A stretch of DNA of 64,000 nucleotides from Manis javanica (taxonomy: Eukaryota; Chordata; Mammalia; Pholidota; Manidae). The stretch covers positions 88,646,001-88,710,000 of the forward strand of contig NC_133157.1 of NCBI RefSeq assembly GCF_040802235.1. Reading direction: 5' to 3'. The notes under the pieces are model-generated. The model had not been told where the DNA came from. It worked only from the letters and a program-made list of their open reading frames with translations, and did no database searches. A program made the translations under genes and the position numbers. Of this stretch, positions 29,501 through 64,000 are shown piece by piece. How positions within the stretch are numbered: the stretch's first letter is position 1; the number at the start of each line of letters is the position of its first letter.

Positions 29501-31100
29501 CTTCATTTGTTAACTTGTTTATTTCAGACAGAGACCAGAGCATGGTCAGAGGCATGGGGTGTGAACATGTGTAGTGTTTTTGGAAAATAACGTAAGGCAA
29601 GTGTAGCTGTAGTGCGGCATGACAGGCAGAATAGTGAGAAATGCAGGCAGAAAGCAGGTGGGCACTGGGGTGATTAGAGATGTGAATGCCATCCTCTTGG
29701 CTAAGCTTGGTCTTGATGGGATTTCAATTGTATTAGGTGTATCAACAGTATAATACATTAGATGCAAAGGGAACGCAAGTACAGTTGATAATGTGCACAT
29801 ACTCAGTTTTGTTGTCCTTATGATCTAAGTGCAGATTGAAAGAAAATTTTCATAAAATATGTGGAAAGTCCTTAAGTTAGGATCCAAATGGAAAGAGAAG
29901 AAATCAGAGCATACGAAACAATTTAATTAAATTCAGATGTTTTCAGTTACCTGAAATGTAAAAAATCAGCTATTAGGATATCCTCATTTCTTAAGGAAAT
30001 TGACCCAGCTTCCTCTGAGGATCATCAAGAATGACAGCTAAGGCTTGGCTAACATTATGAATGTGCTTTGCTTTATTATGGAATCAGCAGTAAGCAGTGC
30101 AAAGAAAAACATGAGGTCAAGGATACTGTAGGTGGAGGAGTCTCCCTGAGCCTTTGCTTCTCACACAGGCGAGTCCAAACTTTAGTGCTCTCAGCAGCCT
30201 GCCAAGAAGATGAGAACTCTCTGGGGTCAGAGGAGCCCCAAACTGCACTCTGCTCTCTAGGCCTCGTTAGGCTGGTGGATGTAGGTGAGTGCAGAACACA
30301 TCAACCCTCATCGTTGCCTGGGTTCTATATTTGTAATTTGTTGTGGAGGCAACAAAGTCGATATAATTATATGATCACTAAAGTTTGTTTAGTGGTTATT
30401 TCTTGCAGTGTTATCCAGCCTAGCTGGAGTTTCACAGCAGCAGTCCTGGGCATGGTTTACAAAGGTGTTTCCTAGTGTCTTAGTGTGAATGGGTGGCCTC
30501 TTTTATAGGTCAAGTGATCTCTGATCATTATTTTTCCCACTTTAATCTAAACGCAAGTGCTGGGCTTACCTTTTTTCAAGGACTAGACTTACTTCTCTGC
30601 TCTGTGGAAAACCTCTAGTGGCTCCCTGTTTCCTGTAAGCCTCCCTTCACAGCTGGCAGGCATTCACAGTCTATCCATCTTCCTGCAGTTGCACCTCTGC
30701 CTTCCCTACGAACCTTTTCCAAAGTCTGGTAAGATTCTACTCGTAATTATGATCCACTGCAAAGATCATCTTTGTGTACCAGATCAAAAGACCAGGCAGA
30801 AATAGAACACACAAGCAAATGCATAGTGCAAGTCATCATTGATACCTGCTACTTCTCAGCATTCACATCTAGATTATTAAGTCATCCTGAGTGTCTCTGA
30901 AATTGTTTTACTCTTCTTTATTTTCTTAACCAACACCACTCTTGTCCAAGCAAGCATCATGTCTCAAGTGGACTGTTGTAGAGGTCTGCTAGCTGGTCTT
31001 TCTACATCTCCTTGCTTTTCTTTTTGGACAGGTTGATTCCTTTCATGTTTATTTTCCTCATGTTTTAAAAATAAATTTTCATATATATATATTTTTTTTT

Positions 31101-31422
31101 GAGAGGGCATCTCTCATATTTATTGATCAAATGGTTGTTAACAAAAATAAAATTCTGTATAGGGGGGTCAATGCTCAATGCACAATCATTAATCCATCTC
31201 AAGCCTAATTCTCATCAGTCTCCAATCTTCTGAGGCATAACGAACAAGTTCTTACATGGTGAACGAATTTTACATAGTGAATAAGCTCTTACATGGTGAA
31301 CAGTACAAGGGCATTCATCACAGAAACTTTCGGTTTTGATCACGCATTATGAATTATAAACAATCAGGTCAAATATGAATATTTGTTTGATTTTTATACT
31401 TGATTTATATGTGGATCCCACA
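31101..31422 (-). mobile_element. ERV 3' LTR (U3-R) at the end of the L1A tail
   Basis: In the L1 sense, the purine-rich AAAGGGAGAAA is followed directly by TGTGGGATCC, as at a PPT/U3 boundary. A TATA-like TATAAATC lies just inside. Three imperfect ~20-bp repeats of TTCACCATGTAAGAA type follow (plus strand about 31240-31305). AATAAA at 31119-31124 is 18 bases before the poly(A). U5 is absent, as expected for a polyadenylated transcript end. Confidence 0.7.
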
Positions 31423-32054
31423 TTTCTCCCTTTATTTTTATTATTATTTTTATTTTTAATAAAATGCTGAAGTGGTAGGTAGATGCAAGATAAAGGTAGA
31501 AAACATAGTTGAGTGCTGTAAGAGGGCAAATGTAGATGATCGGGTGTGTGCCTATGGACTAAGTATTAATCCAAGCTAGACAAGGGCAGCAAAACATCCA
31601 CAGATGCAGAAGATATCTGTCAAAGCAGGGGGGGTGAGGTTCTGAGCCTCACCTCTGTTGATCCCCAAATTCTCACCTGATGGCCCCCCTGCGACTGTGC
31701 CTGTCTTAGGTTGTTCCTCCCTTGAGGAATCTTACCCATCTCTGGCTAACCAGTCATCTTCTGGGGCCATACAGGGAAATGTAAAGTTGGTAAGTGAGAG
31801 AGAAGCCATATTGTTTGAAAAGGTTAGCTTTCTACTTCTTTGCAGATTTATGCCCTGTGGCTTCTATGCCCAGCACTTGTCTCGAGGTATCTTTACCACC
31901 TGGAGGAATTATGATACTTGGTAAATTCGATATGAGAAACTAATTCTATTTAAGGGTTGTAATTAGGAAGGAAGAAGAAAAGCTATAGAGGTAGCATATG
32001 GAAAAAACATGGGAGGATTGATTATTTCTTTGACATATCTTCTTGTAGAGTACC

Positions 32055-32507
32055 TTAAGCATGTATAGGTTTTAAACTACTAACTAATTTGCACACACAT
32101 ATTAACATAATAGGAATACGGTGACATAAACAAAGCAAATCTATAATTACTATCCATCTCCAGTGAAGCCAAGAAAACCATTTAGGCACCCTAGGCATTT
32201 GTGAAAATTTGTCTATGATATGATGGATATTGTCCTACTGTACTTGAACAGTCTGAGAAAAATCAGACAAATTAAAGCAGCCCATTTCTGGGATCTGTTC
32301 ACATCCCATATGTTCTTTTAACCGTAGATAGTCTATAGTCATAAGATTTTGGAGTGCTACAACTTGCACCCCTCCCAACTCCTGGTTGAGTTCCAACAGT
32401 ACAGATCCGGTCAAATTCGTTGTCTCACTGTATGCACATGCCAGCCTAGACATCTCCCTCCTCATTCCAATGGCAAGTCCAGGAAACGGTGGGGTGGACG
32501 CAGCCAC
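32055..32507 (-). pseudogene. Retroviral env transmembrane-subunit fragment in the L1A tail
   Basis: The frame runs in the L1 sense from 32507 to a TAG at 32235 and, beyond it in the same phase, on to TAA at 32055. Seen features: a hydrophobic N-terminal stretch, a heptad-type region, LQNLMTIDYL (the immunosuppressive-domain position of gamma/alpha-type env), a C-x7-C in the place of the usual CX6CC motif with one Cys replaced by Gly, and FNLSD. After the TAG come a Trp-rich stretch and a hydrophobic anchor. The surface subunit is absent. The spacing resembles alpharetrovirus-like TM proteins. It is a broken fragment of an old endogenous copy, with no evidence of expression. Confidence 0.8.
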
Positions 32508-33260
32508 AACCGCAGCATCGCCCGGATCCCTGTGAAGGCTTTTTGATGATCATCCCCCGGCACGAGTCCTCCAGAGAGTGCTGATGCCGGAAGCTCCTCC
32601 TCATATCGTATCTTAGTTCATTTTCTGGGTATCCAAGCTAGGCCTTGATCTTCTGCATAGAAACAAACAGACCCTTTGCCCACACTTTGACATGCCCTCT
32701 ATACCACTGTGCAGAGCTCATTGGAGGTCAGCACACAGGGACTGCATTTTTTTTTTTTTATTAAGAGAAAGGAATATTATCAGAAAAGAGTACCTCCATA
32801 GCTGATCATCTGACACCCTTTAAGTGATCAACATTAAGGATATTTAAAGCATGCGTTGATCTTTGATTTACCAATAGTTTTATTCTATCAAGGAGTAATC
32901 CCCCTTTTCTTTTTTTTTTTAATCTTTAATCTACACTTACATGAAGAATACTATGTTTACTATGCTCTCCCCTATATCAGGTCCCCCCTAACAACCACAT
33001 TATGGTTACTGTCCATCAGCTTAGCAAAATGTTGTAGAATCCCTACTTGTCCTCTCTGTGTTGTGCAGCCCACCCTCCCCTTTCTCTTTCCCCCCCATGC
33101 ATGCTAATCTTAATACCCCCATTCTCCCCCCCCCCCTTATCCCTCCCTGCCCACCCATCCTCCCCAGTTCCTTTCCCTTTGGTACCTGTTAGTCCATTTT
33201 TGGGTTCTGTAATTCCACTGCTGTTCTGTTCCTTCAGTTTTTCCTTTGTTCCTATACTCC

Positions 33261-36200
33261 TCAGGTGAGTGAAATCATTTGGTATTTCTCTTTCTCCGCT
33301 TGGCTTATTTCACTGAGCATAATACTCTCCAGCTCCATCCATGTTGCTGCAAATGGTTGGATTTTTCCACTTCTTATGGCTGAGTAGTATTCCATTGTGT
33401 ATATGTACCACATCTGCTTTATCCATTCATCTACCGATGGATATTTAGGTTGCTTCCAATTCTTGGCTATTGTAAATAGTGCTGCGGTAAACATAGGGGT
33501 GCATCTGTCTTTCTCAAACTTGATTGCTGTGTTCTTAGGGTAAATTCCTAGGAGTGGAATTACTGGGTCAAATGGTAGGTCTGTTTTGAGCATTTTGATG
33601 AACCTCCAAACTGCTTTCCACAATGGTTGAACTAATTTACATTCCCACCAGCAGTGTAGGAGGGTTCCCCTTTCTCCACAGCCTCGCCAACATTTGTTGT
33701 TGTTTGTCTTTTGGATGGCAGCCATCCTTAGTGGTGTGAGGTGATACCTCATTGTAGTTTTAATTTGCATTTCTCTGATAATTAGCGATGTGGAGCATGT
33801 TTTCATGTGTCTGTTGGCCATCTGTATTTCTTTTTTAGAGAACTGTCTGTTCAGTTCCTCTGCCCATTTTTTAATTGGGTTATTTCTTTTTTGTTTGTTG
33901 AGGCATGTGAGCTCTTTATATATTCTGGACGTCAAGCCTTTATCGGATCTGTCATTTTAAAATATATTCTCCCATACTGTAGGGTTCCTTTTTGTTCCAT
34001 TGATGGAGTCTTTCGCTGTACAGAAGCTTTTCAGCTTAATGTAGTCCCACTTGCTCATTTTTGCTGTTGTTTTCCTTGCCCGGGGAGATATGTTCAAGAA
34101 GAGGTCACTCATGTTTATGTCTAAGAGGTTTTTGCCTATGTTTTTTTCCAAGAGTTTAATGGTTTCATGACTTACATTCAGGTCTTTGATCCATTTTGAG
34201 TTTACCTTTGTATATGGGGTTAGACAATGGTCCAGTTTCATTCTCCTACACGTAGCTGTCCAGTTTTGCCAGCAACATCTGTTGAAGATACTGTCATTTC
34301 CCCATTGTATGTCCATGGCTCCTTTCTCAAATATTAATTGACCATATATGTTTGGGTTAATTTCTGGAGTCTCTAATCTGTTCCACTGGTCTGTGGCTCT
34401 GTTCTTGTGCCAGTACCAAATTGTCTTGATTACTATGGCTTTGTAGTAGAGCTTGAAGTTGGGGAGTGAGATCCCCCCTACTTTATTCTTCTTTTTCAGG
34501 ATTGCTTTGGCTATTCGGGGTCTTTGGTGTTCCCATATGAATTTTTGAATTATTTGTTCCAATTCATTGAAGAATGTTGCTGGTAATTTGATAGGGATTG
34601 CATCAAATCTGTATATTGCTTTGGGCAGGATGGCCATTTTGACAATATTAATCCTTCCTAGCCATGAGCATGGGATGAGTTTCCATTTATTAGTGTCCCC
34701 TTTAATTTCTCTCAAGAGTGACTTGTAGTTTTCAGAGTATAAGTCTTTCACTTCTTTGGTTAGGTTTATTCCTAGGTATTTTATTCTTTTTGATGCAATG
34801 GTGAATGGAATTGTTTTCCTGATTTCTCTTTCTTTTGATTCATTGTTAGTGTATAGGAAAGCTACAGATTTCTGTGTGTTAATTTTGTATCCTGCAACTT
34901 TGCTGTATTCCGATATCAGTTCTAGTAGTTTTGGAGTGGAGTCTTTAGGGTTTTTTATATACAGTATCATATCATCTGCAAATAGTGATAGTTTAACTTC
35001 TTCTTTACCAATCTGGATTCCTTGTATTTCTTTGTTTTGTCTGATTGCCGTGGCTAGGACCTCCAGTACTATGTTAAATAACAGTGGGGAGAGTGGGCAT
35101 CCCTGTCTTTTTCCCGATCTCAGAGGAAATGCTTTCAGCTTCTCGCTGTTCAGTATAATGCTGGCTGTGGGTTTATCATATATGGCCTTTATTATGTTGA
35201 GGTACTTGCCCTCTATTCCCATTTTGCTGAGAGATTTTATCATGAATGGATGTTGAATTTTTTCAAATGCTTTTTCAGCATCTATGGAGATGATCATATG
35301 GTTTTTGTCTTTCTTTTTGTTGATGTGGTGGATGATGTTGATGGATTTTCGAATGCTGTATCATCCTTGCATCCCTGGGATGAATCCCACTTGGTCATGG
35401 TGTATGATCCTTTTGATATGCTGTTGAATTCTGTTTGCTAATATTTTATTGAGTATTTTTGCATCTACATTCATCAGGGATATTGGTCTGTAATTCTCTT
35501 TTTTGGTGGGGTCTTTGCCTTGTTTTGGTATTAGGGTGATGTTGGCTTCATGGAATGAGTTTGGGAGTATTCCCTCTTCTTCTATTTTTTGGAACACTTT
35601 AAGGAGAATGGGTATTATGTCTTCTTTGTGTGTCTGATAAAATTCCGAGGTAAATCCGTCCTGCCCCGAATTATTGTTCTTGGGTAGTTTTTTGATTACC
35701 GTTTCAATTTCTTTGTTCGTAATTGATTTGTTTAACTTTTGTGTTTCTTCCTTGGTCAGTCTTGGGAGGTTGTATTTTTCTAGAAAGTTGTCCATTTCTT
35801 CTAGGTTTTCCAGTTTGTTGGCATATAGGTTTTCATAGTAATCTTTAATAATTCTTTGTATTTCTGTGGAGTCTGTCGTGATTTTTCCATTCTCATTTCT
35901 GATTATGTTTATTTGTGTTGATTGTCTTTTTCCTCTTAATAAGTTGGGCTAGAGGCTTATCTATTTTGTTTATTTTCTCAAAGAACCAGCTCTTGGTTTC
36001 GTTGATTTTTGCTATTGTTTTATTCTTCTCAATTTTGTTTATTTCTTCTCTGATCTTTATTATGTCCCTCCTTCTGCTGACTTTAGGCCTCATTTGTTCT
36101 TCTTTTTCCAGTTTCGATAATTGTGATGTTAGTCTATTCATTTGGGATTGTTCTTCCTTCTTCAAGTGTGCCTGGATTGCTATATACTTTCCTCTTAAGA

Positions 36201-37089
36201 CTGCTTTCGCTGCGTCCCACAGAAGTTGTTGTTATTTGTTTCTATATATTCCTTGATCTCTATTTTGATTTGTTCCTTGATCCATTGATTATTTAGTAGC
36301 ATGTTGTTAAGCCTCCATGTGTTTGTGAGCCTTTTTGTTTTCTTTGTAGAATTTATTTCTACTTTTATAGCTTTGTGGTCTGAAAAATTGGTAGGTAGAA
36401 TTTCAATATTTTGGAATTTACTGAGGCTCTTTTTGTGAGCTAGTATGTGGTCTATTCTGGAGAATGTTCCATGTGCACTTGAGAAGATGTATATCCTGTT
36501 GCTTTTGGATGTAGAGTTCTATAGATGTCTGTTAGGTCCATCTGTTCTAGTGTGTTGTTCAGTGCCTGTGTGTCTTTACTTATTTTCTGCCCGGTGGATC
36601 TATCCTTTGTGGTGAGTGTTGTGTTGAAGTCTCCTAAACTGAATGCATTGCAGTCTATTTCCCTCTTTAGTTCTGTTAGTATTTGCTTCACATATGCTGG
36701 TGATCCTGTATTGGGTGCATATATATATTTAGAATGGTTATATCCTCTTGTTGGACTGAGCCCTTTATCATTATGTAGTATCCTTCTTTATCTCTTGTTA
36801 CTTTCTTTGTTTTGAAGTCTATTTTGTCTGTTATTAGTACTGCAACCCCTGCTTTCTTCTCACTGTTGTTTGCCTGAAATATGTTTTTCCATCCCTTGAC
36901 TTTTTGTCTATGCTTGTCTTTGGGTTTAAGGTGAGTTTCTTGTAAGCAGCATATAGATGGGTCTTGCTTTTTTATCCATTCTGTTACTCTGTGTCTTTTG
37001 ATTGGTGCATTAAATCCATTTACATGTAGGGTGACTATTGAGAGATATGTACTTATTGCCATTGCAGGCTTTAGATTCGTGGTTACCAA
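33261..37089 (-). pseudogene. L1A ORF2 (endonuclease-reverse transcriptase), broken
   Basis: Pieces occur in order. The endonuclease starts at 37089 (TYLSIVTLHVNGFNAPIKRH, QETHLK) and is frameshifted near 36690. A further piece at 36691-36452 ends KATGYTSSQ... after a one-base deletion. An inter-domain piece lies at 36165-35893 and the RT N-terminal region at 35795-35361. A 446-codon RT frame at 35297-33957 keeps [11 protein letters not shown] and FADDM. The C-terminal domain at 33935-33261 keeps the [18 protein letters not shown] Cys/His knuckle and ends at the natural stop. At least four frame breaks rule out an active protein. Confidence 0.9.
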
Positions 37090-37320
37090 AGTTTCAAGGT
37101 TAGCTTCTTTAGTATCTTACTGCCTAACTTAGCTCGCTTATTGAGCTGTTATATACACTGTCTGGAGATTCTTTTCTTCTCTCTCTTCTTATTCCTCCTC
37201 CTTCATTCTTCATATGTTGTGTGTTTTGTTCTGTGCTCTTTTTAGGAGTGCTCCCATATAGATCAGTCCCTGTAGGATGCCCTGTAGAGGTAGTTTGTGG
37301 GAAGCAAATTCCCTTATCTT

Positions 37321-38148
37321 TTACTTGTCTGGGAATTGTTTAATCCCACTATCATATTTAAATGATAGTCGTGCTGGATACAGTATCCTTGGTTCAAGGC
37401 CCTTCTGTTTCATTGCATTAGGTATATCATGCCATTCTCTTCTGGCCTGTAAGGTTTCTGTCGAGAAGTCTGATGTTAGCCTGATGGGTTTTCCTTTATA
37501 GGTGACCTTTTTCTCTCTAGCTGCCTTTAAAACTCTTTCCTTGTCCTTGATCCTTGCCATTTTAATTACTATTTGTCTTGGTGTTGTCCTCCTTGTATCC
37601 TTTCTGTTGGGGGTTCTGTGTAATTCCATAGTCTGTTTGATTATTTCCTCCCCCAGTTTGGGGAAGTTTTTAGCAATTATTTCTTCAAGGAGACTTTCTA
37701 TCCCTTTTCCTCTTTCTTCTTCTTCTAGTACCCCTGTAATACGAATATTATTCCTTTTGGATTGGTCACATAGTTCTCTTAGTGTTGTGTCATTCTTGGA
37801 GATCCTTTTATCTCTCTCTATGTCAGCTTCTATACGTTCCTGTTCTCTGGCTTCTTTTCCTTCAATGGCCTCTTGCATCTTATCCATTCTGCTTATAAAT
37901 CCTTCCAGGGATTGTTTCACTTCTGTGATCTCCTTCCTGACATCTGTGATCTCCCTCTGGACTTCATCCCATTGCTCTTGCATTTTTCTCTGCATCTCAT
38001 CCCATTGCTGTTGCATTTTTCTCTGCATCTCTGTCAGCATGTTCATGATTTTTATTTTGAATTCTTTTTCAGGAGGACTGGTTAGGTCTGTCTCCTTCTC
38101 AGGTGTTGTCTCTGTGATCTTTTTCTGCCTGTAGTTTTGCCTTTTCAT
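37321..38148 (-). pseudogene. L1A ORF1 (RNA-binding chaperone), nearly intact
   Basis: 275 codons with no internal stop. The order is an N-terminal basic region, a long coiled coil (about residues 30-115), an RRM-like domain (NNIRITGV... about residue 132), and a C-terminal domain ending LEPRILYPARLSFKYDSG. ORF1p normally trimerises through the coiled coil and coats L1 RNA. The frame stops at TAA where L1B has CAA, costing roughly the last 35 residues. The coiled coil contains an 11-residue (33-bp) tandem duplication of the type DEMQRKMQ.QW. Confidence 0.9.
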
Positions 38149-39391
38149 GGTGATGTAGATAGTTTGCAGAGCTGGTACGAGTTACCGCTGGAAGACCTTC
38201 CCTTCTTGTTGGTTTGTGACCTTCCTCTCCTGGGAGAATAGCGACCTCTAGTGGCTTATGCTTGACAGCTGTGCGCAGACAGAGCTTCTGCTACCTGTCT
38301 GTTTGCTATGGAGTTTATGTCCGCTGTTGCTGTGGACACGGCCTGGCTCGGGCTGCTCCTCCAAAGTGGTGGAGCCCTGTTGGAGGGGGAGTGGCCGGCA
38401 GGGTATTTATCTCCGTAAGGGCCCTCTGTGCTCCCTGTTGCCCAGGGGTTTAGAGTGCCCAGAGATCCCGAGATTCCCTGCCTCTGATCTAAGTGTCCTG
38501 TCCTGCCCCTTTAAGACTTCCAAAAAGCACTCTCCAAACCAAAACAACAACAGCAACAATGAGAGAGAAAACAGCAAAAGAAAAGGAAAAAGCATGCGAT
38601 TTTTTTTTTTCTCCTCAGGTGCCGGTCCCAGGCACCCCCTCACTGGTCCTGCTGCCCTGCCTCCCTAGCACCGGGGTCCCTGTCCCTTTAAGGCTTCCAA
38701 AAAGCACTCGCCAAAAAGAGAAAAAAAAGGGGAAAAACGCGCGATTTCCTCCGTCCTCAGGCATCGGTCTCAGGTACCCGCCCACCGGTCCAGCAGGGAA
38801 AAATGCACGATATTCTTTGTCCTCAGGCGCCAGTCCCTGGCACCCGCTCACCGGTCCTGCCGCTCTGCCTTCCTAGCACCGGGGTCCCTGTCCCTTTGAG
38901 GCTTCCAAAAAGCACTCACCAAAAAGAGAAAATAAAAAGGTGAAAAGCGCGCGATTTCCTGCGTCCTCAGCGCCGGTCTCAGGCACCCGCCCACCGGTCC
39001 CACAGGGAAAAACGCGTGATATTCTTTGTCCTCAGGCGCTGGTCCCAGGCACCTGCTCACCGGTCCCGCCGCTCTGCCTCCCTAGCACCGGGGTCCCTGT
39101 CCCTTTAATGCTACCAAAAAGGACTCGCCAAAAAAAAAACCGCTGCGGTTTCTTTTCACCTGCCGGGAGCCGGGGGGAGGGGCGCTTGGGTCCCGCCGGG
39201 CTGGGGCTTGTATCTTACCCCCTTCGCAAGGCGCTGGGTTGTTGCAGGCGTAGATGTGGTCTGGATGTTGTCCTGTGTCCTCTGGTCTCTATTTTAGGAA
39301 GAGTTTCCTTTGTTATATTTTCATAGATCTATGTGTTTTTGGGAGGAGATTTCCACTGCTCTATTCACGCCGCCATCCTGGCTCCACCCTC
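38149..39391 (-). promoter_or_regulatory. L1A 5' UTR with tandem monomers
   Basis: GC-rich and CpG-containing. The plus-strand anchor CCCTTTAAGGCTTCCAAAAAG or close variants recurs near 38507, 38684, 38892 and 39101, spaced 177, 208 and 209 bp. Each full unit contains two copies of a CCTCAGGCGCCGGTC...CACCCGC.CACCGGTCC sub-motif. This is a repeated-monomer promoter like that of mouse L1. The extreme 5' end keeps AGGATGGCGGCG, a YY1-like site. Confidence 0.85.
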
Positions 39392-45573: not shown

Positions 45574-45590
45574 AAAAAATGTTATGCCCA
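45574..45590. repeat. Target-site duplication, left copy
   Basis: AAAAAATGTTATGCCCA immediately before the retroposed tail copy. Confidence 0.9.
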
Positions 45591-46413
45591 GAAGCCACAG
45601 GGCATAAATCTGCAAAGAAGTAAAAAGCTAACCTTTGCAAACAATATGGCTTCTCTCTCACTTACCAACTTTACATTTCCCTGTATGGCCCCGGAAGATG
45701 ACTGGTTAGCCAGAGACGGGTAAGATTCCTCAAGGGAGGAACAACCTAAGACAGGCACAGTCGCAGGGGGGCCATCAGGTGAGAATTTGGGGATCAACAG
45801 AGGTGAGGCTCAGAACCTCACCCCCCCTGCTTTGAGAGAAATCTTCTGCATCCGTGGATGTCTTGCTGCCCTTGTCTAGCCTGGATTAATACTTAGTCCA
45901 TAGGCACACACCTGATCATCTGATCATCTACATTTGCCTTCTTACAGCACTAAACTATGTTTTCTACCTTTATCTTGCATCTACCTACCACTTCAGCATT
46001 TTATTAAAAATAAAAATAATAATAATAATAGGAGAAATGTGGGATCAACATATAAATCAAGTACAAAAATCAAATGAATATTCATATTTGACCTGATGGT
46101 TTATAGGTCATATTGCATGATCAAAACCGAAAGTTTCTGTGATGACTGCCCTTGTACTGTTCACCATGTAAGAATTTATTCACTCTGTAAGAATTCGTTC
46201 ACCATGTAAGAACTTGTTCGTTATGCTTCAGAAGATTGGAGACTGACGAGAATTAGGCTTGAGATGGATTAATGATTGTACATTGAGCATTGACCCCCCT
46301 ATACTGAATTTTATTGTTGTTAACAACCATTTGATCAATAAATATGAGAGATGCCCTCTCAAAAAAAAAATAAAAATAAAAAAATAAACCAAAAAAAAAA
46401 AAAAAAAAAAAAA
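45591..46413 (+). mobile_element. Retroposed copy of the ERV-LTR tail, 5'-truncated, sense to AUH
   Basis: The sequence from GAAGCCACAGGGCATAAATC to ATGCCCTCTC (46360), followed by an A-rich tail (46361-46413), matches the last ~750 bp of the L1A and L1B tails in the opposite genomic orientation. The LTR starts at about 46038 (AGGAGAAA|TGTGGGATC) and AATAAA is at 46337-46342. The target site ATGTTATGCCCA (up to 17 bp counting shared A's) occurs at 45574-45590 and again at 46414-46425. This is the signature of L1-type target-primed insertion. It has no env or L1 coding sequence, so it could derive from the composite L1 or from an ERV transcript. Confidence 0.9.
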
Positions 46414-46425
46414 ATGTTATGCCCA
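46409..46425. repeat. Target-site duplication, right copy
   Basis: AAAAAATGTTATGCCCA directly after the poly(A); the leading A's merge with the tail, so 12 bases are unambiguous. Confidence 0.88.
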
Positions 46426-51005: not shown

Positions 51006-51021
51006 TAGCTGTGTTTTTTTT
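51006..51021. repeat. L1B target-site duplication, left copy
   Basis: TAGCTGTGTTTTTTTT, merging into the L1B poly(T) (antisense poly(A)). Confidence 0.9.
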
Positions 51022-51025
51022 TTTT

Positions 51026-52850
51026 GAGAGGGCATCTCTAATATTTATTGATCAAATGGTTGTTAACAACAATAAAATTCAGTATAGGGGGGTCGATGCT
51101 CAATGTACAATCATTAATCCATCTCAAGCCTAATTCTCGTCAGTCTCCAATCTTCTGAAGCATAACGAACAAGTTCTTACATGGTGAACGAATTCTTACA
51201 TAGTGAATAAATTCTTACATGGTGAACAGTACAAGGGCAATCATCACAGAAACTTTCGGTTTTGATCACGCATTATGAACTATAAACAATCAGGTCAAAT
51301 ATGAATATTCGTTTGATTTTTATACTTGATTTATATGTTGATCCCACATTTCTCCCTTTATTATTATTATTATTTTTATTTTTAATAAAATGCAGAAGTG
51401 GTAGGTAGATGCAAGATAAAGGTAGAAAACATAGTTGAGTGCTGTAAGAGGGCAAATGTAGATGATCAGGTGTGTGCGTATGGACTAAGTATTAATCCAA
51501 GCTAGACAAGGGCAGCAAAACATCCACGGATGCAGATTTCTCTCAAAGCAGGAGGGATGAGGTTCTGAGCCTCACCTCTGTTGATCCCCAATTTCTCACC
51601 TGATGGCCCCCCTGCGACTGTGCCTGTCTTAGGTTGTTCCTCCCTTGAGGAATCTTACCTGTCTCTGGCTAAGCAGTCATCTTCCGGGGCCATACAGGGA
51701 AATGTAAAGTTGGTAAGTGAGAGAGAAGCCATATTGTTTGAAAAGGTTAGCTTTCTACTTCTTTGCAGATTTATGCCCTGTGGCTTCTATGCCCAGCACT
51801 TGTCTCGAGGTATCTTTACCACCTGGAGGAATTATGATACTCGGTAAATTCGATATGAGAAATGAATTCTATTTAAGGGTTGTAATTAGGAAGGAAGAAG
51901 AAAAGCTATAGAGGTAGCATATGGAAGAAAACATGGGAGGATTGATTATTTCTTTGACATATCTTCTTGGAGAGTACCTTAAGTATGTATAGGTTTTAAA
52001 CTACTAACTAATTTGCACACACATATTAACATAATAGGAATACGGTGACATAAACAAAGCAAATCTATAATTACCATCCATCTCCAGTGAAGCCAAGAAA
52101 ACCACTTAGGCACCCTAGGCATTTGTGAAAATTTGTCTATGATATGATGGATATTGTCCTACTGTACTTGAACAGTCTGAGAAAAATCAGACAAATTAAA
52201 GCAGCCCATTTCTGGGATCTGTTCACATCCCATATGTTCTTTTAACCGTAGATAGTCTATAGTCATAAGATTTTGGAGTGCTACAACTTGCACCCCTCCC
52301 AACTCCTGGTTGAGTTCCAACAGTACAGATCCAGTCAAATTCGTTGTCTCACTGTATGCACATGCCAGCCTAGACATCTCCCTCCTCATTCCAATGGCAA
52401 GTCCAGGAAACGGTGGGGTGGACGCAGCCACAACCGCAGCATCGCCCGGATCCCTGTGAAGGCTTTTTGATGATCATCCCCCGGCACGAGTCCTCCAGAG
52501 AGTGCTGATGCCGGAAGCTCCTCCTCATATCGTATCTTAGTTCATTTTCTGGGTATCCAAGCTAGGCCTTGATCTTCTGCATAGAAACAAACAGACCCTT
52601 TGCCCACACTTTGACATGCCCTCTATACCACTGTGCAGAACTCATTGGAGGTCAGCACACAGGGACTGCATTTTTTTTTTTTTATTAAGAGAAAGGAATA
52701 TTATCAGAAAAGAGTACCTCCATAGCTGATCATCTGACACCCTTTAAGTGATCAACATTAAGGATATTTAAAGCATGCGTTGATCTTTGATTTACCAATA
52801 GTTTTATCCTATCAAGGAGTAATCCCCCTTTTCTTTCTTTTTTTTTTTTT
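51026..52850 (-). mobile_element. L1B 3' tail: A-tract, segment, A-tract, env-PPT-LTR
   Basis: Same architecture as the L1A tail. First A-tract is the T-run near 52840-52850, the second is 52671-52683, the PPT/LTR boundary is at about 51348, and AATAAA is at 51044-51049. Differences from L1A are scattered single bases, indicating recent common origin. Confidence 0.87.
51979..52431 (-). pseudogene. Retroviral env TM fragment in the L1B tail
   Basis: The 90-residue open part is identical in protein sequence to that in L1A. It is followed by the same in-frame TAG (52159-52161) and the same later TAA (51979-51981). The shared stop shows the fragment was already broken before the two L1 copies separated. 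Confidence 0.8.
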
Positions 52851-53190
52851 ACTCTTTAATCTACACTTACATGAAGAATACTATGTTTACTATGCTCTCC
52901 CCTATATCAGGTCCCCCGTAACAACCACATTACGGTTACTGTCCATCAGCTTAGCAAAATGTTGTAGAATCCCTACTTGTCCTCTCTGTGTTGTGCAGCC
53001 CACCCTCCCCTTTCTCTTTCCCCCCAATGCATGCTAATCTTAATACCCCCATTCTTCTCCCCCCCCTTATCCCTCCCTGCCCACCCGTCCTCCCCAGTTC
53101 CTTTCCCTTTGGTACCTGTTAGTCCATTTTTGGGTTCTGTAATTCCGCTGCTGTTCTGTTCCTTCAGTTTTTCCTTTGTTCTTATACTCC

Positions 53191-56100
53191 TCAGATGAGT
53201 GAAATCATTTGGTATTTCTCTTTCTCCGCTTGGCTTATTTCACTGAGCATAATACTCTCCAGCTCCATCCATGTTGCTGCAAATGGTTGGATTTTTCCAC
53301 TTCTTATGGCTGAGTAGTATTCCATTGTGTATATGTACCACATCTTCTTTATCCATTCATCTACCGATGGACATTTAGGTTGCTTCCAATTCTTGGCTAT
53401 TGTAAATAGTGCTGCGGTAAACATAGGGGTGCATCTGTCTTTCTCAAACTTGATTGCTGTGTTCTTAGGGTAAATTCCTAGGAGTGGAATTACTGGGTCA
53501 AATGGTAGGTCTGTTTTGAGCATTTTGATGAACCTCCAAACTGCTTTCCACAATGGTTGAACTAATTTACATTCCCACCAGCAGTGTAGGAGGGTTCCCC
53601 TTTCTCCACAGCCTCGCCAACATTTGTTGTTGTTTGTCTTTTGGATGGCAGCCATCCTTAGTGGTGTGAGGTGATACCTCATTGTGGTTTTAATTTGCAT
53701 TTCTCTGATAATTAGCGATGTGGAGCATGTTTTCATGTGTCTGTTGGCCATCTGTATTTCTTTTTTAGAGAACTGTCTGTTCAGTTCCTCTGCCCATTTT
53801 TTAATTGGGTTATTTCTTTTTTGTTTGTTGAGGCATGTGAGCTCTTTATATATTCTGGACGTCAAGCATTTATCGGATCTGTCATTTTAAAATATATTCT
53901 CCCATACTGTAGGGTTCCTTTTTGTTCCATTGATGGAGTCTTTGGCTGTACAGAAGCTTTTCAGCTTAATGTAGTCCCACTTGCTCATTTTTGCTGTTGT
54001 TTTCCTTGCCCGGGGAGATATGTTCAAGAAGAGGTCACTCATGTTTATGTCCAAGAGGTTTTTGCCTATGTTTTTTTCCAAGAGTTTAATGGTTTCATGA
54101 CTTACATTGAGGTCTTTGATGCATTTTGAGTTTACCTTTGTCTATGGGGTTAGACAATGGTCCAGTTTCATTCTCCTACACGTAGCTGTCCAGTTTTGCC
54201 AACACCATCTGTTGAAGATACTGTCATTTCCCCATTGTATGTTCATGGTTCCTTTATCAAATATTAATTGACCATATATGTTTGGGTTAATTTCTGGAGT
54301 CTCTAATCTGTTCCACTGGTCTGTGGCTCTGTTCTTTTGCCAGTACCAAATTGTCTTGATTACTATGGCTTTGTAGTAGAGCTTGAAGTTGGGGAGTGAG
54401 ATCCCCCCTACTTTATTCTTCTTTTTCAGGATTGCTTTGGCTATTCGGGGTCTTTGGTGTTCCCATATGAATTTTTGAATTATTTGTTCCAATTCATTGA
54501 AGAATGTTGCTGGTAATTTGATAGGGATTGCATCAAATCTGTATATTGCTTTGGGCAGGATGGCCATTTTGACAATATTAATCCTTCCTAGCCACGAGCA
54601 TGGGATGAGTTTCCATTTATTAGTGTCCCCTTTAATTTCTCTTAAGAGTGACTTGTAGTTTTCAGAGTATAAGTCTTTCACTTCCTTGGTTAGGTTTATT
54701 CCTAGGTATTTTATTCTTTTTGATGCAATGGTGAATGGAATTGTTTTCCTGATTTCTCTTTCTATTGATTCATTGTTAGTGTATAGGAAAGCTACAGATT
54801 TATGTTTGTTTATTTTGTATACTGCAACTTTGCTGTATTCCGATATCAGTTCTAGTAGTTTTGGAGTGGAGTCTTAGGGTTTTTTATGCACAGTATCATA
54901 TCATCTGCAAATAGTTACAGTTTAAGTACTTCTTTACCAATCTGGATTCCTTGTATTTCTTTGTTTTGTCTGATTGCCGTGGCTAGGACCTCCAGTACTA
55001 TGTTAAATGACAGTGGGGAGAGTAGGCATCCCTGTCTGGTTCCCGATCTCAGAGGAAATGCTTTCAGCTTCTTGCTGTTCAGTATAATGCTGGCTGTGGG
55101 TTTATCATATATGGCCTTTATTATGTTGAGGTACTTGCCCTCTATTCCCATTTTGCTGAGAGTTTTTATCATGAATGGATGTTGAATTTTGTCAAATGCT
55201 TTTTCAGCATCTATGGAGATGATCATGTGGTTTTTGTCTTTCTTTTTGTTGATGTGGTGGATGATATTGATGGATTTTCGAATGTTGTACCATCCTTGCA
55301 TCCCTGGGATGAACCCTACTTGGTCATGATGTATGAACCTTTTGATATACTGTTGAATTCTGTTTGCTAATATTTTATTGAGTATTTTTGCATCTACATT
55401 CATCAGGGATATTGGTCTGTAATTTTCTTTTTTGGTGGGGTCTTTGCCTTGTTTTGGTATTAGGGTGATGTTGGCTTCATAGAATGAGTTTGGGAGTATT
55501 CCCTCTTCTTCTATTTTTTGGAACACTTTAAGGAGAATGGGTATTATGTCTTCTTTGTGTGTCTGATAAAATTCTGAGGTAAATCTGTCCGGCCCCGGGA
55601 TTTTGTTCTTGGGTAGTTTTTTGATTACCGTTTCAATTTCATTGCTCGTAATTGGTTTGTTTAACCTTTGTGTTTCTTCCTTGGTCAGTCTTGGGAGGTT
55701 GTATTTTTCTAGGAAGTTGTCCATTTCTTCTAGGTTTTCCAGCTTTTTGGCATATAGGTTTTCATTATAGTCTTTATTAATTCTTTATATTTCTGTGGAG
55801 TCTGTCATGATTTTCCCATTCTCATTTCTGATTATGTTTATTTGTGTTGATTGTCTTTTGTCTTAATAAGTTTGGCTAGAGGCTTATCTATTTTGTTTAT
55901 TTTCTCAAAGAACCAGCTCTTGGTTTCATTGATTTTTGCGATTGTTTTATTCTTCTCAATTTTGTTTATTTCTTCTCTGATCTTTATTATGTCCCTCCTT
56001 CTGCTGACTTTAGGCCTCATTTGTTCTTCTTTTTCCAGTTTCGATAATTGTGATGTTAGACTATTCATTTGGGATTGTTCTTCCTTCTTCAAGTGTGCCT

Positions 56101-57030
56101 GGATTGCTATATACTTTCCTCTTAAGACTGCTTTCGCTGCGTCCCACAAAAGTTGGGGCTTAGTGTTGTTGTTGTCATTTGTTTCTATATATTCCTTGAT
56201 CTCTATTTTGATTTGTTCCTTGATCCATTGATTATTTAGTAGCATGTTGTTAAGCCTCCATGTGTTTGTGAGCCTTTTTGTTTTCTTTGTAGAATTTATT
56301 TCTACTTTTATAGCTTTGTGGTCTGAAAAATTGGTAGGTAGAATTTCAATATTTTGGAATTTACTGAGGCTCTTTTTGTGAGCTAGTATGTGGTCTATTC
56401 TGGAGAATGTTCCATGTGCACTTGAGAAGATGTATATCCTGTTGCTTTTGGATGTAGAGTTCTATAGATGTCTGTTAGGTCCATCTGTTCTAGTGTGTTG
56501 TTCAGTGCCTGTGTGTTCTTACTTATTTTCTGTCCAGTGGATCTATCCTTTGTGGTGAGTGGTGTGTTGAAGTCTCCTACAATGAATGCATTGCAGTCTA
56601 TTTCCCTCTTTAGTTCTGTTAGTATTTGCTTCACATATGCTTGTGCTCCTGTATTGGGTGCATATATATTTAGAATGGTTATATCCTCTTGTTGGACTGA
56701 GCCCATTATCATTATGTAGTATCCTTCTTTATCTCTTGTTACTTTCTTTGTTTTGAAGTCTATTTTGTCTGATATTAGTACCGCAACCCCTGCTTGCTTC
56801 TCACTGTTGTTTGCCTGAAATATGTTTTTCCATCCCTTGACTTTTCGTCTATGCTTTTCTTTGGGTTTAAGGTGAGTTTCTTGTAAGCAGCATATAGATG
56901 GGTCTTGCTTTTTTATCCATTCTATAACTCTGTGTCTTTTGATTGGTGCATTAAGTCTATTTACATGTAGGGTGACTATTGAGAGATATGTACTTATTGC
57001 CATTGCAGGCTTTAGATTCGTGGTTACCAA
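53191..57030 (-). pseudogene. L1B ORF2, broken
   Basis: The endonuclease frame 57030-56395 runs 211 codons with QETHLK, NIYAPN and GDFNTPL, then shifts frame at KATGYTSSQ, the same one-base deletion as in L1A. Further pieces are 56245-55838, the RT N-terminal half 55724-54915 ([23 protein letters not shown]) frameshifted just before the FADD motif, 54681-54142, 54081-53887, and the C-terminal knuckle domain 53865-53191 to the natural stop. It is not functional. Confidence 0.9.
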
Positions 57031-57309
57031 AGGTTCAAGGTTAGCTTCTTTAGTATCTTACTGCGTAACTTAGCTCACTTATTGTGCTGTTATATACACT
57101 GTGTGGAGATTCTTTTCTTCTCTCCCTTCTTATTCCTCTTCCTCCCTTCTTCATATGTTGTGTGTTTTGTTCTGTGCTCTTTTTAGGAGTGCTCCCATAT
57201 AGATCAGTCCCTGTAGGATGCCCTGTAGAGGTGGTTTGTGGGAAGCAAAATCCCTCAGCTTTTGCTTGTCTGGGAATTGTTTAATCCCACCATCATATTT
57301 AAATGATAG

Positions 57310-58089
57310 TCATGCTGGATACAGTATCCTTGGTTCAAGGCCCTTCTGTTTCATTGCATTAAGTATATCATGCCATTCTCTTCTAGCCTGTAGGGTTTCT
57401 GTCAAGAAGTCTGATGTTAGCTTGATGGGTTTTCCTTTATAGGTGACCTTTTTCTCTCTAGCTGCCTTTAAAACTCTTTCCTTGTCCTTGATCCTTGCCA
57501 TTTTAATTACTATGTGTCTTGGTGTTGTCCTCCTTGGATCCTTTCTGTTGGGTGCTCTGTGTAATTCCATGGTGTGTTCGATTATTTCCTCCCCCAGTTT
57601 GGGGAAGTTTTCAGCAATTATTTCTTCCAAGAGACTTTCTATCCCTTTTCCTCTTTCTTCTTCTTCTGGTACCCCTATAATACGAATATTATTCCTTTTG
57701 GCTTGGTCACATAGTTCTCTTAGTGTTGTTTCATTCCTGGAGATCCTTTTATCTCTCTCTATGTCAGCTTCTATACGTTCCTGTTCTCTGGCTTCTATTC
57801 CTTCAATGGCCTCTTGCATCTTATCCATTTTGCTTATAAATCCTTCCAGGGATTGTTTCACTTCTGTGATCTCCTTCCTGACATCTGTGATCTCCCTCTG
57901 GACTTCATCCCATTGCTCTTGCATTTTTCTCTGCATCTCATCCCATTGCTCTTGCATTTTTCTCTGCATCTCTGTCAGCATGTTCATGATTTTTATTTTG
58001 AATTCTTTTTCAGGAGGACTGGTTAAGTCTGTCTCCTTCTCAGGTGTTGTCTCTGTGATCTTTGTCTGCCTGTAGGTTTGCCTTTTCAT
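57310..58089 (-). pseudogene. L1B ORF1, truncated by nonsense
   Basis: 259 codons with the same domain order as L1A ORF1: basic N-terminus, coiled coil with the 33-bp repeat, RRM-like NNIRIIGV, and C-terminal domain to RILYPA. The stop is TGA where L1A has CGA, a CpG-type transition. The downstream sequence remains open past the point where L1A stops, so the two copies were inactivated independently in ORF1. Confidence 0.9.
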
Positions 58090-59678
58090 GGTGATAGAGA
58101 TAGTTTGCAGAGCTGGTACGAGTGACCGCTGGAAGAGCTTCCCTTCTTGTTGGTTTGTGGCCTTCCTCTCCTGGGAGAATAGCGACCTCTAGTGGCTTAT
58201 GCTTTTCAGCTGTGCGCAGGGAGGGCTTCTGCTACCTGCCCGTTTGCTATGGAGTTCATGTCTGCTGTTGCTGTGGGTGTGGCCTGGCTGGGGCTGCTCC
58301 TCCAAAGTCGTGGAGCCCCGTTGGAGGGGGAGCGGCCGGGAGTCTATTTATCTCCATAAGGGTCCTCTGTGCTCCCTGTTGCCCAGGGGTTTAGAGTGCC
58401 CAGAGATCCCCAAATTCCCTGCCTCTGGTCTAAATGTCCTGTTCTGACCCTTTAAGACTTCCAAAAAGCACTCTCCAAACCAAAACGACAACAGGAACAA
58501 TAAGAGAGGGAACAGAAAAAAAAAAAAATAGTTAAAAACAAGCAATTTTTTTTTTTTCCCTCTGGCGCCGGTCCCAGGCAGCTGCTCGGTGGTCCTGATG
58601 CCCTGCCTCCCTAGCACCGGGGTCCCTGTCCCTTCAAGGCTTCCAAAAAGCACCGCCCACCGGTCCCACAGGGAAAAACGCGCGATATTCTTTGTCTTCA
58701 GGCGCCTGTCCCAGGCACCCGCTCACCGGTCCTGCTGCTCTGCCTCCCTAGCACGGAGGTCCCTATCCCTTTAAGGCTTCCAAAAAGCACTCGCCAAAAA
58801 GAAAAAAAAGGGAAAAATGCGCGATTTCCTCCATCCTCAGGCGCCTGTCTCAGACACCCGCCCACCGTTCCCGCAACGAAAAACGTGCGATATTCTTTGT
58901 CCACAGGCACCGGTCCCAGTCACCCGCTCACCGGTCCTGCTGCTCTCCCTCCCTAGCACCAGGGTCCCTGTCCCTTTAAGGCTTCCAAAAAGCACTCTTC
59001 AGAAAGAGAAAAAAAAAAGAGGGAAAAATGCGCGATTTCCTCCGTCCTCAGCCACCGGTCTCAGGCACCCGATCTGCGGTCCCGCAGGGAAAAGGATGGG
59101 ATATTCTTTGTCCTCAGGCGCTGGTCCCAGGCACCTGCTCACCGGTCCCGCCGCCCTGCCTCCCTAGCACCGGGCTCCCTATCCCTTTAAGGCTTCTAAA
59201 AAGCACTCGCCAAAAAGAGAAAAAAAAAGGGGAAAAATGCACCGTTTCCTCCGTCCTCAGTCGCCGGTCTCAGGCACTCGCCCACCGGTTCCATAGGGAA
59301 AAATGCGTGATGATCTTTGTCCTCAGGTGCTTGTCCCAGGCACCCGCTCACTGGTCCCGCCACCCTGCCTCCCTAGCAACGGGGTCCCTGTCCCATTACG
59401 GAAAGCACTCGCCAAAAAAAAAAAAACCGCTCCGGTTTCTTTCCACCCGTCGGGAGCCGGGGGGAGGGGCGCTCGGGTCCCGCCGGGCCTGGGCTTGTAT
59501 CTTACCCCTTTCGCAAGGCGCTGGGTTCTTGCAGGTGTGGATGTGGTCTGGATGTTGTCCTGTGTCCTCTGGTCTCTATTTTAGGAAGAGTTTTCTTTGT
59601 TATATTGTCATAGCTCTATGTGTTTTTGGGAGGAGTTTTCCACTGCTCTACTCACACCGCTATCCTGGCTCCGCCCCC
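58090..59678 (-). promoter_or_regulatory. L1B 5' UTR with expanded monomers
   Basis: The monomer anchor (CCCTTTAAGGCTTCCAAAAAG type) recurs near 58448, 58630, 58767, 58972, 59182 and 59392, with spacings 182, 137, 205, 210 and 210 bp. That is two units more than L1A, one of them shortened. The YY1-like site at the extreme 5' end is mutated (ATAGCGG instead of ATGGCGG). Confidence 0.85.
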
Positions 59679-59694
59679 TAGCTGTGTTTTTTTT
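59679..59694. repeat. L1B target-site duplication, right copy
   Basis: TAGCTGTGTTTTTTTT immediately after the L1B 5' end (GCTCCGCCCCC on the plus strand). Confidence 0.92.
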
Positions 59695-63500: not shown

Positions 63501-64000
63501 TATACTTTCCTCTCAGCATGGCCTTGATTGCGTCCCACAGATTTTTGTGTGTTGAGTTACTGTTATCATATGTCTCCATATATTGCTTGATCTGTTTTTA
63601 TTTTGTCATTGATCCATTTGTTATTTAGGAGTGTGTTTTGAAGCGTCTATGTGTTTGTAGTATTTTTCATTTTTTTGCGTCATTTATTTCTAGTTTCATA
63701 CCTTTGTGGGCTGAGAAGCTGATTGGTACAATTTCAGTCTTTTTGAATATACTGAGGCCTTTTTTGTGGCCTAGTATATGATCTATTATTGAAAATATTC
63801 CATGTGCACTTGAGAAGAATGTGTATTCTGCTGCTTTTGGGTGTAGAGTTCTGTAGATGTCTGTTGGGTCCATTTGTTCTAATGTGTTGTCCAGTGCCTC
63901 TTCCTCCTTACTTATTTTCTGTTTGGTTGATCTGTCCTTTGGAGTGAGTGGAGCATTGAAGTCTCCTAGAATGAATGTACTGTATTCTATTTCCCCTTTT
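60511..64000 (-). mobile_element. L1C: older LINE-1 with ordinary 3' end, cut by the window edge
   Basis: Minus-strand L1 beginning (3' end) at 'tttttttataaatgtattattg'. It has the G-rich 3' UTR tract on its sense strand but no env/LTR tail. An ORF2 C-terminal segment is missing at about 60788, and ~180 bp are inserted at 62754-62933. ORF2 traces include 61697-61422, 61912-61676, 62547-62125 and 63873-63667; the last reads through KAAEYTFFSSAHG without the deletion seen in L1A and L1B. ORF2 continues beyond the window. Confidence 0.85.
62754..62933 (-). repeat. Local duplication inside L1C ORF2
   Basis: About 150 bp of this segment (62778-62930) duplicate 63293-63440 of the same element almost exactly. 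The insertion is bounded on both sides by TTTAAGGAGG (62744-62753 and 62925-62934). Confidence 0.85.

What the first reader, a model, noticed from the sequence alone, without database searches (positions are those of the whole stretch)
31092..39391. Composite LINE-1 carrying the 3' end of an endogenous retrovirus (env TM, polypurine tract, LTR U3-R)
L1A and L1B, two independent insertions, end not at the L1 3' UTR but after a shared ~1.8-kb tail. In the L1 sense the tail reads env TM fragment, PPT (AAAGGGAGAAA), TG-start LTR, AATAAA and poly(A). L1C, without this tail, shows the ordinary end. The simplest reading is that an L1 read through into a neighbouring ERV, borrowed its LTR poly(A) signal, and the chimera then multiplied. 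3' transduction by L1 is established. A lineage that fixed an ERV env-LTR terminus as its standard 3' end is, to my knowledge, unusual and perhaps undescribed.
Basis: partly seen in the sequence, partly recalled or inferred. Interest (0 to 1): 0.9.

Follow-up and report, generated by a model that had tools for sequence, protein, structure and literature searches.

The report
Pangolin LINE-1 wearing retroviral 3' end
In the Malayan pangolin genome a LINE-1 jumping element has taken on the tail end of an old retrovirus, with its RNA-ending signal, as its usual end, has spread in thousands of copies, and in one branch carries a cluster of changes that looks like ancient RNA editing.

Summary
By its assembly statistics the host is the Malayan pangolin. 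L1A (31101-39391, -) and L1B (51026-59679, -) keep the ordinary L1 3' UTR and an A-rich remnant, then carry about 1.8 kb of an endogenous retrovirus: sequence around the start of env, an ASLV-like env TM piece, polypurine tract, and LTR U3-R ending at the R/U5 boundary plus poly(A). A third, tail-only copy (45591-46360, +) lies between 17-nt duplications. Exact patterns occur genome-wide 1,108 times (L1-ERV junction), 15,348 (tail 22-mer) and 133 (true R-U5 ends). Of 46 matching L1 3' UTR ends on one 23.9-Mb stretch, 43 are shown tailed. ERV loci with more env and U5 exist; the nearest is 84% identical and colinear with the tail. The 15 tailed L1s compared form one group (100/100). New: between older and younger tails, 23 of 25 fixed differences in about 200 nt are A>G, with ADAR-like neighbours and nearly all-or-none haplotypes, as if one hyper-edited L1 RNA founded the younger branch. 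Closest parallel: SVA's SINE-R, here on an L1 that has coding capacity as a family.

The parts
31101..39391 (-). L1A, near full-length tailed L1; reading frames broken
   Evidence: 96.1% to L1B; frames; RVT_1 and L1 ORF1 domains
37321..38148 (-). L1A ORF1 frame
   Evidence: Transposase_22 E 4.2e-22, Tnp_22_dsRBD E 1e-12
32905..33260 (-). Ordinary L1 3' UTR with A-rich remnant at its end (old L1 poly(A), inferred)
   Evidence: ORF2 frame ends near 33264; A/G-rich tract just before GGGGGATTACTCC in L1A, L1B, 13 sampled G-type copies that span it and L037
32532..32904 (-). ERV part 1: begins GGGGGATTACTCC, holds a length-variable A run near 32752, ends about the start of env (inferred)
   Evidence: contiguous in the L1-free ERV relative L041; last ~52 nt match the first 52 nt of L040, 80.8%
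32058..32531 (-). ERV part 2: env TM fragment, stop inside
   Evidence: ASLV TM 4jpr E 6.4e-8; frames; about 900 nt of env missing before it relative to L040
32370..32569 (-). A>G cluster: 23 fixed A>G relative to older tails
31423..31433 (-). Polypurine tract AAAGGGAGAAA
   Evidence: same place as the PPT of ERV loci
31101..31422 (-). LTR U3-R, AATAAA at 31119-31124, ends at the R/U5 boundary
   Evidence: ERV loci continue as U5 (A/G)GCACC at this base
51026..59679 (-). L1B, second tailed L1; tail 51026-52828, PPT 51349-51359, LTR U3-R 51026-51348
51007..51021 (.). L1B target-site duplication, 3' copy
59680..59694 (.). L1B target-site duplication, 5' copy
45591..46360 (+). Tail-only copy: 5'-truncated tailed L1; LTR TG at 46038
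   Evidence: 94% to the L1A tail
45574..45590 (.). Target-site duplication of the tail-only copy, left
   Evidence: AAAAAATGTTATGCCCA
46409..46425 (.). Target-site duplication of the tail-only copy, right
60783..64000 (-). L1C, untailed older L1 (comparison)
   Evidence: 84% to L1A in its best piece; outside the tailed group

Best explanation
A composite L1 lineage. SHOWN: tailed elements are L1s whose ordinary 3' UTR and A-rich end are followed by the 3' end of an endogenous retrovirus (sequence around the env start, shortened env with TM, PPT, LTR U3-R), ending at the R/U5 boundary and then poly(A); the tailed L1s compared form one group, the same junction occurs over a thousand times, and copies bear the marks of L1 insertion (target-site duplications, poly(A), 5' truncation). 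INFERRED: an L1 sat in sense orientation inside a provirus just upstream of env; its transcript ran past its own poly(A) site to the AATAAA of the 3' LTR and was cleaved at the R end (3' transduction). Because the transduced piece carried its own 3'-processing signal, daughter RNAs ended there and the terminus became the usual one. INFERRED second step: one tail RNA was A-to-I hyper-edited by ADAR over about 200 nt while double-stranded, was reverse transcribed, and founded the younger branch to which L1A and L1B belong.
For: Junction 1,108 times, control 0; tail 22-mer 15,348, control 0; 43 of 46 L1 3' UTR ends of this type on C1 up to 23.9 Mb shown tailed. In 20 fetched loci (22 ends) every alignment runs through the last ERV base (ref 8291) into the A run; 20 of 22 ends read CCCTCTC before the A-rich run. 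Exact duplications of 11 nt or more at 10 of 28 ends examined, plus L1B by eye. ERV loci L039, L040, L043 continue into U5 at that base; 133 exact R-U5 ends genome-wide, control 0, two of them 7.3 kb apart on one strand, the downstream one inside L039. L043 is colinear with tail L037 over 1,355 nt at 84% and its env frame continues upstream. Tailed L1s 15 of 15 on one side of a 100/100 branch. Editing: 23 of 25 differences in ref 6815-7030 are A>G versus 3 of 16 elsewhere (p 2.7e-6, block chosen after seeing it); 3' G 12/23 vs 6/47 (p 9e-4), 5' G 2/23 vs 16/47 (p 0.04); five ERV loci have A in 71 of 81 A/G-resolved cells, the nearest (L043) in 13 of 13; six-site haplotypes in the first 100 of 9,991 matches: 55 all G, 37 all A, 8 with one A, none in between.
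Against: No founder (an L1 still inside a provirus at this site) was found; none was sought by a dedicated search. The ~900-nt env gap shows no clear GT-AG ends and is unexplained. The closest ERV is only 84% identical, so the exact donor is unknown. 18 of 28 ends gave no exact duplication of 11 nt (some because the fetched stretch or the chain of pieces ends early); L1A is one of them. Only 2 of the 8 untailed L1s in the tree reach the 3' UTR end in the aligned piece. No RNA data show that the LTR signal is used. Frames of L1A and L1B are broken and no mobile copy was sought. Read backwards, 18 of 23 A>G contexts (GG, GA) would also suit APOBEC3; only the ERV outgroups fix the direction. No inverted partner of the block was found in the fetched stretch of L037, and its own fold is only 1.7 SD more stable than shuffles.
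Confidence: 0.8

Rival explanations
1. Template switching: reverse transcription began on a (shortened) ERV mRNA at its poly(A) tail and jumped to the poly(A) end of an L1 RNA, giving the same order L1, A-run, ERV 3' end in one step without an L1 inside a provirus.
For: Gives the same junction with an A-rich tract; could also accommodate the missing ~900 nt of env as a processed ERV RNA.
Against: The env gap shows no GT-AG boundary in L040, L039 or L043. 3' transduction is the commoner L1 behaviour (passage in PMC12593883), and an L1 lying between env and 3' LTR of another pangolin ERV is on record (PMC12584738).
Confidence: 0.25
2. Nested or recurrent insertions: L1s repeatedly landed next to, or were hit by, ERV fragments.
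For: Tail-only copies exist.
Against: Same junction 1,108 times; one group in the tree; tails end in poly(A) at the R end, unlike LTRs, which continue into U5; duplications enclose L1 plus tail (L1B, L021, L025).
Confidence: 0.02
3. The A>G cluster is not editing but GC-biased gene conversion or ordinary substitution along a long branch.
For: The younger branch is not short (0.042 in ORF2) and tails could convert one another.
Against: Gene conversion should also give T>C: 1 T>C against 23 A>G inside the block (p 3e-6). Stepwise change should leave intermediate haplotypes; none in the 100 listed.
Confidence: 0.1
4. The A-type tails are APOBEC3-hypermutated descendants of a G-type ancestor.
For: 18 of 23 sites have G or A 3' of the changed base, an APOBEC3 plus-strand context (motif recalled).
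Against: Five separate ERV loci carry A in 71 of 81 resolved cells; the A-type copy L037 keeps a 175-aa open TM frame; L037 splits off before the G-type copies.
Confidence: 0.05

Closest known systems
SVA retrotransposon, SINE-R module (from the 3' end of env and the 3' LTR of HERV-K10; passages of PMC12593883 seen)
   Same: Env 3' end plus 3' LTR forms the 3' terminus of an element moved by L1 proteins, followed by an A-tail.
   Different: SVA is non-autonomous (abstract starts) and hominid-specific; here the module sits on an L1 with ORF1 and ORF2 sequences, comes from another ERV, and also holds sequence from around the env start.
L1 3' transduction families (e.g. PMC6425141, search listing only)
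   Same: Downstream DNA with its own poly(A) site carried to new loci after the L1 A-rich end.
   Different: Those I recall are small families beside untailed siblings; here 43 of 46 ends examined are shown tailed, with thousands of copies and at least two sub-lineages.
Pangolin ERVs, MPERVs (PMC12584738; abstract and Results read)
   Same: Alpha-, beta- and gamma-like ERVs in the Chinese pangolin; one Gamma element (b9) has an almost complete LINE-1 between env and 3' LTR, the kind of arrangement inferred for the founder here.
   Different: That element is a gamma ERV. 13 Alpha ERVs and 19 Alpha solo LTRs are reported, and no L1 carrying an ERV end in the parts read. I could not test whether our ERV is one of its lineages.
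L1 chimeras (Law and Burns 2026, PMC13174262; abstract and searched passages)
   Same: L1 RNA joined to other RNAs.
   Different: In what I saw, human 5'-side chimeras; word searches of its main text for pangolin, Manis and ERV gave 0.

Membership tests
LINE-1 | ORF1 RNA-binding protein and ORF2 reverse transcriptase | tested here: met
   Transposase_22, Tnp_22_dsRBD, RVT_1; endonuclease domain not tested
LINE-1 | Target-site duplications, poly(A), 5' truncation | tested here: met
   10 of 28 ends by script plus L1B; starts from ref 3 to 7779 in L009-L028
LINE-1 | Usual though not defining: L1 3' UTR runs directly into poly(A) | tested here: not met
   followed by ERV sequence in 43 of 46 ends examined; 3 not shown either way
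LINE-1 | Currently mobile copy | not tested
   L1A/L1B frames broken; no intact copy sought
ERV 3' end (tail) | env TM | tested here: met
   4jpr E 6.4e-8, 5h9c E 7.2e-8; Pfam found nothing
ERV 3' end (tail) | PPT then TG-start LTR with U3 and R, AATAAA | tested here: met
ERV 3' end (tail) | U5 and LTR end | tested here: not met
   absent, as expected for an RNA 3' end; a pattern for the young R end followed by non-A hit 4 loci, three with an altered start of the A-rich end, one (L029) without A-run, none with the U5 of the ERV loci
L1 3' transduction | A-rich remnant between L1 and transduced DNA, new poly(A) at its end | tested here: met
L1 3' transduction | Source locus identified | tested here: not met
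   relatives of the donor found (L043, 84%), not the founder
SVA | Hexamer, Alu-like and VNTR modules, no L1 coding sequence | tested here: not met
   element carries L1 ORF domains; the SVA modules themselves were not searched for
ADAR hyper-editing | Clustered A>G, 5' G avoided, 3' G favoured | tested here: met
   under-representation of 5' G at ADAR sites in passages of PMC2873906; 3' G preference recalled
ADAR hyper-editing | Double-stranded partner | tested here: inconclusive
   no inverted partner in the 10-kb stretch L037; inverted tails near each other do occur, as in this window, though that one does not cover the block

The most novel reading that the evidence does not exclude
A mammalian LINE took over a retroviral polyadenylation module as its functional 3' end, and the branch to which the window's copies belong descends from an L1 RNA that had been hyper-edited by ADAR before reverse transcription: host RNA editing written into a successful transposon lineage in one step.
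Probability: 0.6. Interest if true: 0.8.

Novelty: new variant of a known kind. Interest (0 to 1): 0.72.

Why it matters
It shows an SVA-like module capture on a LINE that encodes its own machinery, with relatives of the donor ERV still present for comparison, so the question whether a new 3'-processing signal helps an L1 spread becomes testable. The nearly all-or-none A>G cluster offers a way to ask whether ADAR-edited RNAs seed new transposon lineages. Practically, homology searches for this ERV's env or LTR in the Malayan pangolin will pick up thousands of L1 tails unless these are filtered.

Tried and rejected
Serial transduction (two-step tail) was considered because of the internal A run near 32752; rejected because L041 has both sides contiguous without L1. 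Splicing as cause of the env gap: no GT-AG ends seen, left open. Selection on the TM frame in the tail: dN/dS 0.07-0.17 in three comparisons that involve ERVs and 0.18-1.6 in twelve among tails, 11 of these below 1; constraint on the tail frame is thus neither shown nor excluded, and the A>G block disturbs the counts. Exact patterns built on the young tail, for LTRs with U5 or without the PPT, found only tail copies. Viral contigs: no match for an ORF2 piece. The PF03708 search (avian gp85) did not complete. A truncation hot spot at ref 7507-7530 (L023, L027, L028, tail-only copy) was half tested: the downstream 22-mer count came (15,348), the upstream one never did.

Sampling limits: L009-L028 are 19 of the 40 scored best matches to L1A's own tail plus one further scored match (20 of 40 in all; 1,676 first-look candidates), so they are biased to the G type. 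The older type rests on L034, L037 and L038, on 39 further scored matches at 96-97% to L033 (3,583 first-look candidates; their A/G state was not read) and on 37 of 100 all-A haplotypes. Those 100 are the first listed of 9,991, all on C1 up to 23.9 Mb; the 46 L1 ends are likewise the listed ones up to that point, and the 22-mer list used to rescue four of them reaches only 13.5 Mb.
Full report
HOST. The window is G000:C2:88646001-88710000 of a genome of 2,559,957,944 bases in 63 contigs. Contig C1 has 241,980,339 bases and C19 141,798,549. The Malayan pangolin assembly in PMC11825179 (searched passages) has 2.56 Gb, 62 scaffolds, 19 pseudochromosomes, longest scaffold 241.98 Mb and scaffold NG50 141.80 Mb. 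I take the host to be Manis javanica; the one extra contig was not examined.

WHAT IS IN THE WINDOW. L1A (31101-39391) and L1B (51026-59679), both on the minus strand, match along their length at 96%. They have L1 ORF1 and RT domains (ORF1 scanned in L1A only) but broken frames. In the L1 sense each runs through the ordinary 3' UTR, which ends in an A/G-rich tract, then GGGGGATTACTCC and about 1.8 kb of tail. A third copy, of the last 0.8 kb of tail, lies on the plus strand (45591-46360) between perfect 17-nt duplications. L1B has a 15-nt duplication; L1A has none that convinces. L1C at 60783-64000 is an older L1 without tail.

WHAT THE TAIL IS. A 104-aa frame in the tail matches the ASLV TM fusion structures (6.4e-8 and 7.2e-8); a metagenome relative, P0034, matches them at 5.9e-10; Pfam gives nothing for three tail pieces. 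Searching the genome with P0034 (150 scored of 30,902 first-look candidates) pointed to loci with longer frames. Of the five fetched from that list, L039 and L040 have env, TM, LTR, then U5 starting (G/A)GCACC exactly where the L1 tails turn into poly(A). L043 is the nearest: 1,355 nt colinear with an older tail (L037) at 84%, env frame continuing upstream (310 aa), PPT, LTR, U5. L042 is a further ERV whose U3 did not align to the tail. L041 is a relative in which the first part of the tail is contiguous with other sequence, no L1 lies between, and the LTR is different. A pattern across R and U5 occurs 133 times, control 0, two of them 7.3 kb apart on one strand with the downstream one inside L039. 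A pol piece from between them has RVT_1 and RVT_thumb and is closest to PDB 7sr6 (9.6e-69; next 8.9e-27), which I recall as HERV-K RT, so that provirus combines a beta-like pol with an ASLV-like TM. Relative to L040 the tail lacks about 900 nt of env (L040 52 to 960). L040's open frame begins about 27 nt before the fetched stretch (497 aa against 488), so the 52 nt shared before the gap lie at the start of env; this is my reading.

HOW COMMON. Exact patterns: junction 1,108, control 0; L1 3' UTR 16-mer 4,965, control 4; tail 22-mer 15,348, control 0; a 34-mer over six variable sites 9,991, control 0. These count exact matches only, so they are lower bounds for copies, and the last two may include some ERVs. 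Of the 46 listed places of the 16-mer on C1 up to 23.9 Mb, 39 have the tail by the 34-mer or junction lists and 4 more by the 22-mer list, 43 of 46 in all; the other three are not shown either way. In a tree of the ORF2 3' end the 15 tailed L1s are one side of a 100/100 branch and 8 untailed the other, L037 splitting first among the tailed. The root is at the midpoint, the bootstrap had not fully settled, and only 2 of the 8 untailed reach the 3' UTR end in the aligned piece. I give no date because no pangolin rate was measured here.

HOW IT MOVES. In the 20 fetched loci L009-L028 (22 ends) each alignment runs to the last letter of the L1A reference, ref 8300, nine As past the last ERV base (ref 8291). 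The letters CCCTCTC stand before the A-rich run at 20 of 22 ends; L015 lacks one C and one of two ends in L019 reads CCCACTC. Their 5' ends range from near full length to about 520 nt. Of 28 ends examined by script, 10 have exact duplications of at least 11 nt; L1B, missed by the script, makes 11. This is ordinary L1 insertion of a tailed RNA.

THE A>G CLUSTER. Comparing two older tails where they agree (L037 = L038) with the young majority (at least 80%), 41 fixed differences appear in 1,337 columns: 25 in ref 6815-7030, of which 23 are A>G, and 16 elsewhere, of which 3 are A>G. The block was delimited after seeing the cluster. The changed As have G 3' of them in 12 of 23 cases against 6 of 47 unchanged As, and G 5' of them in 2 of 23 against 16 of 47. 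The 16 copies of the young set that cover the block are G at 21 to 23 of 23 sites (L009 at 15 of the 15 it covers), L031 at 22; L034, L037 and L038 are A at all 23. Five ERV loci have A in 71 of 81 A/G-resolved cells, G in 10, which sets the direction. The first 100 of 9,991 genome matches are 55 all-G, 37 all-A and 8 with one A over six sites, none with one to four G. One ADAR event on a double-stranded tail RNA explains this best; no partner strand was found in the fetched stretch of L037.

KNOWN OR NEW. SVA's SINE-R has the same plan (env 3' end plus 3' LTR of HERV-K10; passages of PMC12593883). PMC12584738 (Results read) describes a LINE-1 lying between env and 3' LTR of a gamma ERV in the Chinese pangolin: the kind of nesting that could start such a lineage, but not the lineage. 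I found no description of an L1 with an ERV end, nor of a tailed pangolin L1, in searches of an open-licence library (listings; the papers opened are named above); nor of an ADAR-founded L1 lineage in searches (listings, plus passages of PMC5974252 and PMC2873906). Subscription papers, Dfam and Repbase were not searchable; a consensus containing this tail may already be there.

Noticed in passing
ref 7507-7530 of L1A (window about 31862-31885); L023, L027, L028 and the copy at 45591: Four short copies start within about 25 nt of each other, perhaps a 5'-truncation hot spot or a separate short transcript.
   Followed up: partly
window 32752-32765 and alignment: An A-rich run inside the tail varies in length between copies (about 11 to 37 nt); the ERV relative L041 has a short A/C-rich stretch there.
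   Followed up: partly
ref 7492, 7509, 7516 (window 31876-31900): Three further A>G changes in 25 nt, possibly a second small edited patch.
   Followed up: no
L037 and rows with 175-176 aa frames: The older tail L037 keeps an open frame of 175 aa for the env TM fragment, and many rows (chosen by protein similarity) show the same frame length; constraint is neither shown nor excluded.
   Followed up: partly
L036/L038 near the LTR start: One older tail has a short tandem duplication at the PPT/LTR start.
   Followed up: no
L041 (C13:33099700-33102200): A related ERV shares env with the donor family but has a different LTR and a partial env deletion, suggesting exchange of parts among pangolin ERVs.
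   Followed up: no
P0001-P0039: Metagenome protein sets contain translated pieces of this tail, most likely host reads predicted as proteins.
   Followed up: no
window 38514-39155 and 58522-59446: The L1 5' UTR holds tandem units of about 205-211 nt, in different numbers in L1A and L1B.
   Followed up: no
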